Positions 707 to 46,922 of a DNA stretch of 64,000 nt are shown here, in pieces. Position numbers and translations under genes: made by a program. Under the pieces are notes generated by a model, which did not search any database, was not told the DNA's origin, and was given only the letters and a program-made list of their open reading frames with translations. The first letter of the stretch is position 1. Each line of letters opens with the position of its first letter. The DNA lies in assembly GCF_026240635.1 (NCBI RefSeq), contig NZ_CP110848.1:2110501-2174500 (forward strand), given 5' to 3'. The stretch is from Trichothermofontia sichuanensis B231 (lineage in GTDB: Bacteria; Cyanobacteriota; Cyanobacteriia; B231).

Positions 707-818
707 GGCCCTCCTGGATTTATGGTGCGAGCGCTAAGCGCTCCTACCATAAACCTAACATTTCAAATCTTGTGTTTGTAGTTGCGGATAGGGTTTACAC
801 CCAAATATCGGAAGAGTC
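707..818 (-). mobile_element. MITE-like element, degenerate copy 1 (112 bp)
   Basis: This segment has the same length (112 bp) and order as the copies at 42710-42821 and 46762-46873. The ends read GGCCCTCCTG and CGGAAGAGTC, against GGCTCTTCTG and its complement in the good copies. An internal hairpin at 719-753 (TTTATGGT...ACCATAAA arms) is still present. The other half matches the TTTGTAG(C/T)TGC segment of the other copies with many substitutions. The flanks share GAAAAC, a possible worn target duplication. It is the oldest-looking copy of the three and sits just beyond the yceD stop codon. Confidence 0.7.
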
Positions 819-42642: not shown

Positions 42643-42709
42643 TTTATTTTGACAGGGTAGGAGGGCTGCGCTCCTACCCTAGACTTTCGTTCACAGTTTT
42701 AAATTTTCT

Positions 42710-42821
42710 GGCTCTTCTGGGATTTTGGGGTAAACAGTATCAGCAACTACAAATAAACGATCGGAAACGTTGAGTTTATGGTGGGGGCGCGTAGCGCCCC
42801 CACCATAAACTCAGGAGAGCC
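42710..42821 (+). mobile_element. MITE-like element, copy 2 (112 bp) with 8-bp target duplication
   Basis: It starts GGCTCTTCTG and ends CAGGAGAGCC. A near-perfect hairpin (42771-42813, 20-bp arms, TGAGTTTATGGTGGGGGCGC) is in its right half. It is flanked by AATTTTCT direct repeats at 42702-42709 and 42822-42829. It is inverted relative to the copy at 46762. Confidence 0.9.
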
Positions 42822-42844
42822 AATTTTCTGATCATGATTGCAGG

Positions 42845-45390: not shown

Positions 45391-45557
45391 TAAAATATGG
45401 ACACGAGCGGATACATCCACAAAAGTTCCCGCCCCAGTAATGAATATTTCAAGTTAAACCGAGATGTGTAACTGACGCTTTTTTTGATTCTGCGACCCCG
45501 CCTGTTTTCAGCGAAGTAGTGCATTACACCTATATACTTACTGATAAAGTGAAAATC
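45391..45557. other. Gap upstream of the AT-rich membrane protein
   Basis: It shows no coding frame. TTTTTTT at about 45480 may end a transcript from the left, but no stem is clear. Confidence 0.4.
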
Positions 45558-46772
45558 ATGAACGATAAAGTCAAGAGGACAACTATTTTATTAGATTCAG
45601 TAACAAGATGTTATCTAATCTTAATACTGACATCAACAATATGTAGTTTAATTTTTTGTTACATAATCCATCATTCTTGGAATATAGGTGATTGGCTGAT
45701 TAACTATTCAGGCGGATTTGTGCGAAGAGGATTTTTAGGAGAAGTTATCATTTCACTTTCGAGCATTACGGCCATCAATCCAGGATTATTAGTATTGATC
45801 ATTCAAATTCTATCCTATATTATATATTTCCATTTTTCATATCTTTTACTCAATAAAACAAACATTATTACGTATTCAATCCTGACATTTTCGCCATTTA
45901 TATTTACATTTCAATTAAACAGTTTAGGAGCACACAGAAAAGAAATTATATACTTTGCAGTTTTAAGCTTTTTAGTATATGCAAGAAAGCATCTTCACTT
46001 TAAAAAATTCAAGATAATCTTTTTACTCATAACCCTATCGTACCCAGCAATTATATTGAGTCATGAGATGCTCTTCATATTCATGCCATATATTATGGCG
46101 GTATATTTTATTGGCAGCAGGGAAAATTTGCTTAGAAAATTTACTTTGACATCATTACTAGCTTTACCTTCTCTCGTAAGTTTTATCTCATGTTTAATCT
46201 TTAGTGGATCAAGAGATAAAGTTATTGCCATCCGTCAATCACTTTCTCAACTTAATTACCCTATTCCTCGCGGAGGGGCTATTGATGCCCTTGATGATTC
46301 TTTAGTAAACGCAGTAAATACAACAGGTTCTTACATAATACATAATTACTATGTTTTTTATATTCCCATAATCTTATTATCCTTAATTGCTTTTATACCT
46401 ATTTCCAATAAAATTAATGATATCTTAAAAGATCGTTTTGCCTATTTCTTGATCTTAAGCAGTCTATTGGCAACTGTGCCACTTTTGATGTCTGCCCTTG
46501 ATTGGGGAAGATTTATTTATATTCATCTTGTCTCATTTTTTTTGTTATCATTTCTCTCAAAAAAGAGATCAAAACCAACTGATTTTGCTCTCAACAAAAT
46601 CTCAATTTTATTCTTAATTGTTTGGGCTTTACTATTTCGTATACCTCACTGTTGCATAACTAAAAATAACTTTTTTATCGCAACCAATATTCAACAGATC
46701 ACAGTGATGAACTATTTCTTTAATTCACCTATTTCCCTGGTACATATCCTCAAATATAAATGGCTCTTCTGA
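45558..46772 (+). CDS. AT-rich polytopic membrane protein of unknown function
   Basis: About 404 residues with about ten hydrophobic helices and a conserved-looking extracytoplasmic W-L-I-N-Y-S-G-G-F-V-R-R-G near residue 45. Such proteins recall putative polysaccharide-related membrane proteins, but the family is unassigned. Base composition is much more AT-rich than neighbours, suggesting transfer. The 3' end is altered: the last residues W-L-F and the TGA come from the MITE that landed on the original TAA stop. The start is ATG 45558; a GTG at 45519 is possible. Confidence 0.7.
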   Translation: MNDKVKRTTILLDSVTRCYLILILTSTICSLIFCYIIHHSWNIGDWLINYSGGFVRRGFLGEVIISLSSITAINPGLLVLIIQILSYIIYFHFSYLLLNKTNIITYSILTFSPFIFTFQLNSLGAHRKEIIYFAVLSFLVYARKHLHFKKFKIIFLLITLSYPAIILSHEMLFIFMPYIMAVYFIGSRENLLRKFTLTSLLALPSLVSFISCLIFSGSRDKVIAIRQSLSQLNYPIPRGGAIDALDDSLVNAVNTTGSYIIHNYYVFYIPIILLSLIAFIPISNKINDILKDRFAYFLILSSLLATVPLLMSALDWGRFIYIHLVSFFLLSFLSKKRSKPTDFALNKISILFLIVWALLFRIPHCCITKNNFFIATNIQQITVMNYFFNSPISLVHILKYKWLF

Positions 46773-46873
46773 GTTTATGGTGGGGGCGCTACGCGCCCCC
46801 ACCATAAACTCAGCATTTGCGATCGTTTATTTGTAGCTGCTGATACTGCTTACCCCAAAATCCCAGAAGAACC
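46762..46873 (-). mobile_element. MITE-like element, copy 3 (112 bp) with exact 8-bp target duplication
   Basis: It is bounded by GGCTCTTCTG and CAGAAGAACC, with identical 8-bp flanks ATATAAAT at 46754-46761 and 46874-46881. The hairpin (TGAGTTTATGG...) lies in its left half. It is inverted relative to copy 2 and of the same length. It overlaps the last codons of the upstream gene. Confidence 0.92.
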
Positions 46874-46922
46874 ATATAAATAAGAATACAAGCAAGAATA
46901 TTAAGAAGAATTAACTTCTGTT

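What the first reader, a model, noticed from the sequence alone, without database searches (positions are those of the whole stretch)
42710..42821. A 112-bp MITE-like element defined by three copies with 8-bp target duplications
Copies at 42710-42821, 46762-46873 and 707-818 are all exactly 112 bp and share terminal GGCTCTTCTG-like inverted ends and an internal hairpin based on TTTATGGT. Copies 2 and 3 have perfect 8-bp direct repeats (AATTTTCT; ATATAAAT). Copies 1 and 3 are inverted relative to copy 2. This is what a non-autonomous transposon would leave, and the element is not one I can name.
Basis: partly seen in the sequence, partly recalled or inferred. Interest (0 to 1): 0.75.

Follow-up and report, generated by a model that had tools for sequence, protein, structure and literature searches.

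The report
High-copy ISL3-type MITE in a cyanobacterium
The 112-bp sequence is a tiny transposon without genes, present in at least 150 places in this cyanobacterial genome; its ends and 8-bp target duplications mark it as a passenger of ISL3-family insertion sequences, and the only transposase gene of that family found in the genome is dead and carries a copy of the tiny element inside it.

Summary
The three window copies are each exactly 112 bp, and two have perfect 8-bp duplications. The genome (one 4.44-Mb contig) holds at least 150 copies: 119 of the 150 scored are exactly 112 bp, and 89 have perfect 8-bp duplications against 0.01% in mismatched controls. Forty-five and 29 copies, apart from the hairpin loop, match two master sequences, so there were recent bursts. 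An IS4-type element supplies filled and empty sites within the same genome. The element is therefore a MITE. The guess of an IS4/IS1634 source is not supported: the ends and the 8-bp target match ISL3-family insertion sequences. Intact 1248-bp ISL3 elements with such ends and 8-bp duplications occur in other cyanobacteria. The window's genome has only one ISL3 transposase gene, a truncated and frameshifted pseudogene that itself contains a MITE copy. The element has a 19-bp perfect hairpin that occurs in both orientations and is better kept than the rest of old copies. A 2024 paper describes an ISL3-linked 187-bp MITE with 8-nt duplications in Microcystis, so this is a new member of a known kind. 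The unusual points are the copy number and the lack of an intact helper in the assembly.

The parts
42710..42821 (+). MITE copy, subfamily 1 master (GGC...GGAGAGCC); one of 23 copies identical over 112 bp
42702..42709 (.). left target duplication AATTTTCT
42822..42829 (.). right target duplication AATTTTCT
42772..42812 (+). 19-bp perfect stem hairpin with GTA loop, inside the element next to its right end
   Evidence: (-39.3 kcal/mol, z -10.6)
46762..46873 (-). MITE copy, subfamily 2 master (GGT...AGAAGAGCC); one of 27 identical copies
46754..46761 (.). target duplication ATATAAAT (window left side)
46874..46881 (.). target duplication ATATAAAT (window right side)
707..818 (-). old diverged MITE copy, duplication decayed

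Best explanation
The element is a non-autonomous ISL3-family MITE. Its two ends are ISL3 transposon ends. An ISL3-family DDE transposase acting in trans moves it into AT-rich sites and duplicates 8 bp (family assignment: shown by end sequence, duplication length and end-matched intact ISL3 elements elsewhere; the trans action itself: inferred). Two master sequences amplified recently. The helper is no longer intact in the assembled chromosome: the one remaining ISL3 gene is a pseudogene carrying a MITE insertion. Whether a since-lost chromosomal copy, a plasmid or transient horizontal entry supplied the transposase is not known. The internal hairpin is an inverted repeat of part of the right end around a GC-rich core; a role in transposition, or upkeep by arm-to-arm repair, is inferred only.
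For: 150 scored copies, 119 of exactly 112 bp, 89 with perfect 8-bp duplications (control 0.0001), longest flanking duplication peaking at 8. Filled site TCCAAAAC-MITE-TCCAAAAC in an IS4-type element, with uninterrupted TCAAAAAC in two other copies of that element. MITE left end against ISL3 transposase-proximal ends: 24-28 of 35 identical in five elements from five genomes; positions 9-35, which leave out the first 8 bases, reach p of 1.5e-4 or less by shuffling in all five. MITE right end 21/21 identical to an ISL3 remnant end in G015. Intact 1248-bp ISL3 elements with such ends have 8-bp duplications (GAGTTTGG; CACAGCAG). Single ISL3 pseudogene in the genome, with Zn_ribbon_ISL3 and HTH_Tnp_ISL3 domains.
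Against: No intact ISL3 transposase was found in the assembly, so the helper cannot be shown. The ISL3 pseudogene's left end is only 28/35 identical to the MITE left end, so it may be a cousin of the true helper. The MITE is not a simple internal deletion of any ISL3 element seen: its middle has no transposase remnant that was recognised.
Confidence: 0.92

Rival explanations
1. MITE of an IS4/IS1634-like or other 8-bp-duplicating family.
For: 8-bp duplications also occur in several other IS families (established knowledge). An IS4-type transposase (PF01609) lies at one copy.
Against: The IS4-type element is the insertion target: it exists without the MITE at two other sites. The only IS with this end found in the genome is the ISL3 pseudogene. 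Ends of five cyanobacterial ISL3 elements match.
Confidence: 0.03
2. A REP/BIME-like or regulatory palindrome amplified by another route (RAYT-type), with the hairpin as the functional unit.
For: The 19-bp hairpin is very stable and better kept than the spacer in old copies (0.11 versus 0.23 changes per site); copies are mostly intergenic (22 of 143 in ORFs versus a 71% coding baseline); similar GC-rich hairpins stand alone in other cyanobacteria.
Against: Constant 112-bp unit with precise 8-bp duplications and an empty site. Only two hairpin-only palindromes in the genome, neither with a duplication. A 164-bp relative without the hairpin still has a perfect 8-bp duplication.
Confidence: 0.03
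3. An RNA gene or cis-regulatory RNA family that happens to be repeated.
For: Strong predicted structure.
Against: No Rfam match, target duplications and even orientation (73 plus, 77 minus), insertions into genes such as LemA and an IS transposase.
Confidence: 0.01

Closest known systems
187-nt ISL3-linked MITE of Microcystis aeruginosa PCC 7806 (PMC11448079)
   Same: No transposase, GGCTCTTCG-type ends matching ISL3 elements, 8-nt duplications, stem-loop, tens of identical copies, gene disruption.
   Different: 187 nt rather than 112; 31-33 identical copies rather than at least 150 copies in all; ISL3 elements with matching ends are present there, none intact was found here. Its sequence was not compared with ours beyond the published 9-nt end.
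ISL3-family insertion sequences of cyanobacteria (L106 Phorm 6, L107 Lyngbya sp. CCAP 1446/10, L105 uncultured cyanobacterium)
   Same: End sequence over about 35 bp; 8-bp duplications (L106, L107).
   Different: 1248 bp with a transposase gene; the MITE middle is unrelated.
Nezha (cyanobacterial MITE; cited in PMC10969869, original text not held)
   Same: A cyanobacterial MITE.
   Different: Not compared at sequence level here; from memory it is linked to another IS.
MITEs of Anabaena sp. strain 90 (PMC3542288)
   Same: 147 copies in all, mostly intergenic, some disrupt genes.
   Different: Several groups of 77-541 bp, reported as having no matching IS ends in that genome; the text does not mention ISL3.

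Membership tests
MITE | short, no coding capacity, constant length and ends | tested here: met
   112 bp in 119 of 150; stops in all six frames
MITE | terminal inverted repeats | tested here: met
   GGCTCTTCTG / GGCTCTCCTG, imperfect
MITE | target site duplication and empty sites | tested here: met
   89/150 perfect 8 bp; empty site
ISL3-derived MITE | ends shared with ISL3-family elements beyond the terminal motif | tested here: met
   positions 9-35 of the left end, p of 1.5e-4 or less in five transposase-proximal ends
ISL3-derived MITE | same duplication length as the end-matched ISL3 elements | tested here: met
   8 bp in L106 and L107
ISL3-derived MITE | autonomous partner in the same genome (usual, not strictly defining) | tested here: not met
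   only a broken ISL3 gene; plasmids may be missing from the assembly; the end-based assignment does not depend on it
ISL3-derived MITE | mobilised by ISL3 transposase | not testable with these tools
   needs a transposition assay
IS4/IS1634-derived MITE | ends shared with an IS4/IS1634 element | tested here: inconclusive
   IS4/IS1634 ends were not surveyed directly; the IS4-like element examined is a target

The most novel reading that the evidence does not exclude
An orphan MITE that broke its own helper: a MITE copy sits in the last ISL3 transposase gene, yet dozens of identical copies show recent bursts, so the transposase now or lately came from outside the chromosome (plasmid or other visitor), and the perfect hairpin is kept by selection because it helps transposition.
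Probability: 0.15. Interest if true: 0.55.

Novelty: new member of a known kind. Interest (0 to 1): 0.35.

Why it matters
It is a clean, countable case of MITE amplification in a bacterium: two master sequences, at least 150 insertions whose relative ages can be read, a known transposase family and a dead last helper. It offers a natural test of how MITEs outlive their helpers and of what the conserved hairpin does. It also corrects the assumed parent family.

Tried and rejected
In-frame insertion (112+8 = 120 = 40 codons) as a way to be tolerated in genes: rejected, all six frames hold stops. Recombination between copies as the reason for missing duplications: one exact swapped pair of flank halves, about what chance gives. 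Hairpin-only palindromes as an active short form: only two, without duplications. Phage, plasmid and viral-contig carriers: none found with the searches made. Close relatives for strain-level empty sites: none in the held set shares genus or family, so the within-genome empty site was used. The original Nezha paper and the Microcystis supplements were not available.

Full report
OBSERVATION. The three window copies are real and as described: each 112 bp, at 42710-42821 (+), 46762-46873 (-) and 707-818 (-). The first has AATTTTCT on both sides and the second ATATAAAT. The 707 copy is old and its duplication has decayed.

GENOME CENSUS. The window lies at 2110501-2174500 of a 4,436,989-base single contig. 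The 24-bp left end occurs 129 times with up to 3 mismatches against 0 for the reversed control. Of these, 119 are exactly 112 bp and 89 have perfect 8-bp direct repeats; the longest exact flanking repeat peaks sharply at 8, and mismatched flank pairs match in 0.01% of trials. Orientation is even (73 plus, 77 minus). Target sequences are AT-rich (34% G+C versus 52% in the stretches read).

TWO MASTERS AND OLD COPIES. Outside the hairpin loop, 45 copies are identical to master 2 (the 46762 type) and 29 to master 1 (the 42710 type). The two differ at 7 positions. Of these 74 copies, 62 have perfect duplications; of 24 old full-length copies only 5 do. This is the pattern of recent bursts from two sources over an older layer.

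EMPTY SITE. The copy at 3654740 sits in an IS4-type transposase gene (PF01609 fragment) with TCCAAAAC on both sides. Two other copies of that element (at 2990377 and 3956189) have the uninterrupted sequence with one TCAAAAAC (in one search the third row was given on the wrong strand, so the reading rests on its second row and). So the 112 bp arrive with an 8-bp duplication.

WHERE IT INSERTS. By a simple longest-ORF gene model, 22 of 143 insertion points lie inside an ORF against a coding baseline of 71%, so surviving copies are mostly intergenic. Clear disruptions include a LemA-family gene (784311), a DUF3137 gene (456065), an Uma2-type gene (56140) and the IS transposase. In the window, the 46762 copy landed at the stop codon of ORF 45519-46772: the empty site reads ...LKYK*, the filled one ...LKYKWLF*. 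The 42710 copy lies between convergent ORFs.

PARENT FAMILY. The ends and the 8-bp target point to ISL3, not IS4/IS1634. The genome has one ISL3 transposase gene only (PF01610; protein search with an intact ISL3 transposase). It is a pseudogene at 3638852-3639560: frameshifted, cut after about residue 239 of 387, with a subfamily-2 MITE inserted at 3639564 (duplication TGACTTAT), and with half a MITE abutting its left end. Its N-terminal part has the ISL3 zinc ribbon and HTH domains. Its left end, GGCTCTTCTGGGTTTTTGGTGTAAATG, is unique in the genome and matches the MITE left end at 28 of 35 positions. Intact relatives in other cyanobacteria are 1248 bp, with ends of the type GGCTCTTCTGGGTTTGCGGTGTAAA and 8-bp duplications (Phorm 6: GAGTTTGG; Lyngbya CCAP 1446/10: CACAGCAG). 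Leaving out the first 8 bases, the MITE left end matches all five transposase-proximal ends of this subgroup with p of 1.5e-4 or less. The MITE right end is identical over 21 bp to an ISL3 remnant end in G015.

ELSEWHERE. Among 340 genomes of the class, full-length copies by DNA search are found in this genome and in G007 only. G007 belongs to another family, has at least 13 copies by the model, two of three inspected with perfect 8-bp duplications, and many ISL3 elements. G020 has one decayed relative. The other weak model hits inspected are GC-rich hairpins of other kinds. No match in phages, plasmids or viral contigs.

HAIRPIN. The element contains a 19-bp perfect stem with a 3-base loop (-39 kcal/mol). 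It is an inverted repeat of part of the right end around a GC-rich core. The loop reads GTA in most copies and TAC in many others of both subfamilies, so the hairpin occurs in both orientations. In old copies the stem has 0.11 changes per site against 0.23 in the spacer, and 21 stem pairs changed on both sides while still pairing. Because copies share ancestry, this cannot separate selection from repair of one arm by the other or from inheritance of older masters. A 164-bp relative at 3377149-3377312 has the same ends and a perfect duplication (TACCCATT) but another sequence in place of the hairpin; the change may have come after insertion, so it does not prove that the hairpin is dispensable.

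KNOWN OR NEW. A 187-nt MITE in Microcystis with 9-nt GGCTCTTCG-type ends, 8-nt duplications and ISL3 partners was described in 2024 (PMC11448079). The element here is thus a new member of a known kind. What is less usual is the number of copies in a 4.4-Mb genome and the absence of an intact helper in the assembly.

Noticed in passing
G000:C1:3377149-3377312 (L059): 164-bp relative with the same ends and perfect duplication TACCCATT, hairpin replaced by a different interspersed repeat.
   Followed up: partly
L052, around G000:C1:3652600-3652755: A truncated MITE copy is interrupted by a roughly 100-bp repeat with CTATAG at both ends, apparently a second MITE family.
   Followed up: no
G000:C1:3949107-3949165 and 2424458-2424516: Two 59-bp palindromes made of the hairpin with the MITE right end on both sides, without duplications.
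   Followed up: partly
window 42650-42680: Another GC-rich hairpin (GGGTAGGAGGGCTGCGCTCCTACCC) just upstream of the 42710 copy.
   Followed up: no
G007: 51 ISL3 transposase matches, many fragmentary, beside about eight intact copies: a genome with heavy ISL3 activity.
   Followed up: partly
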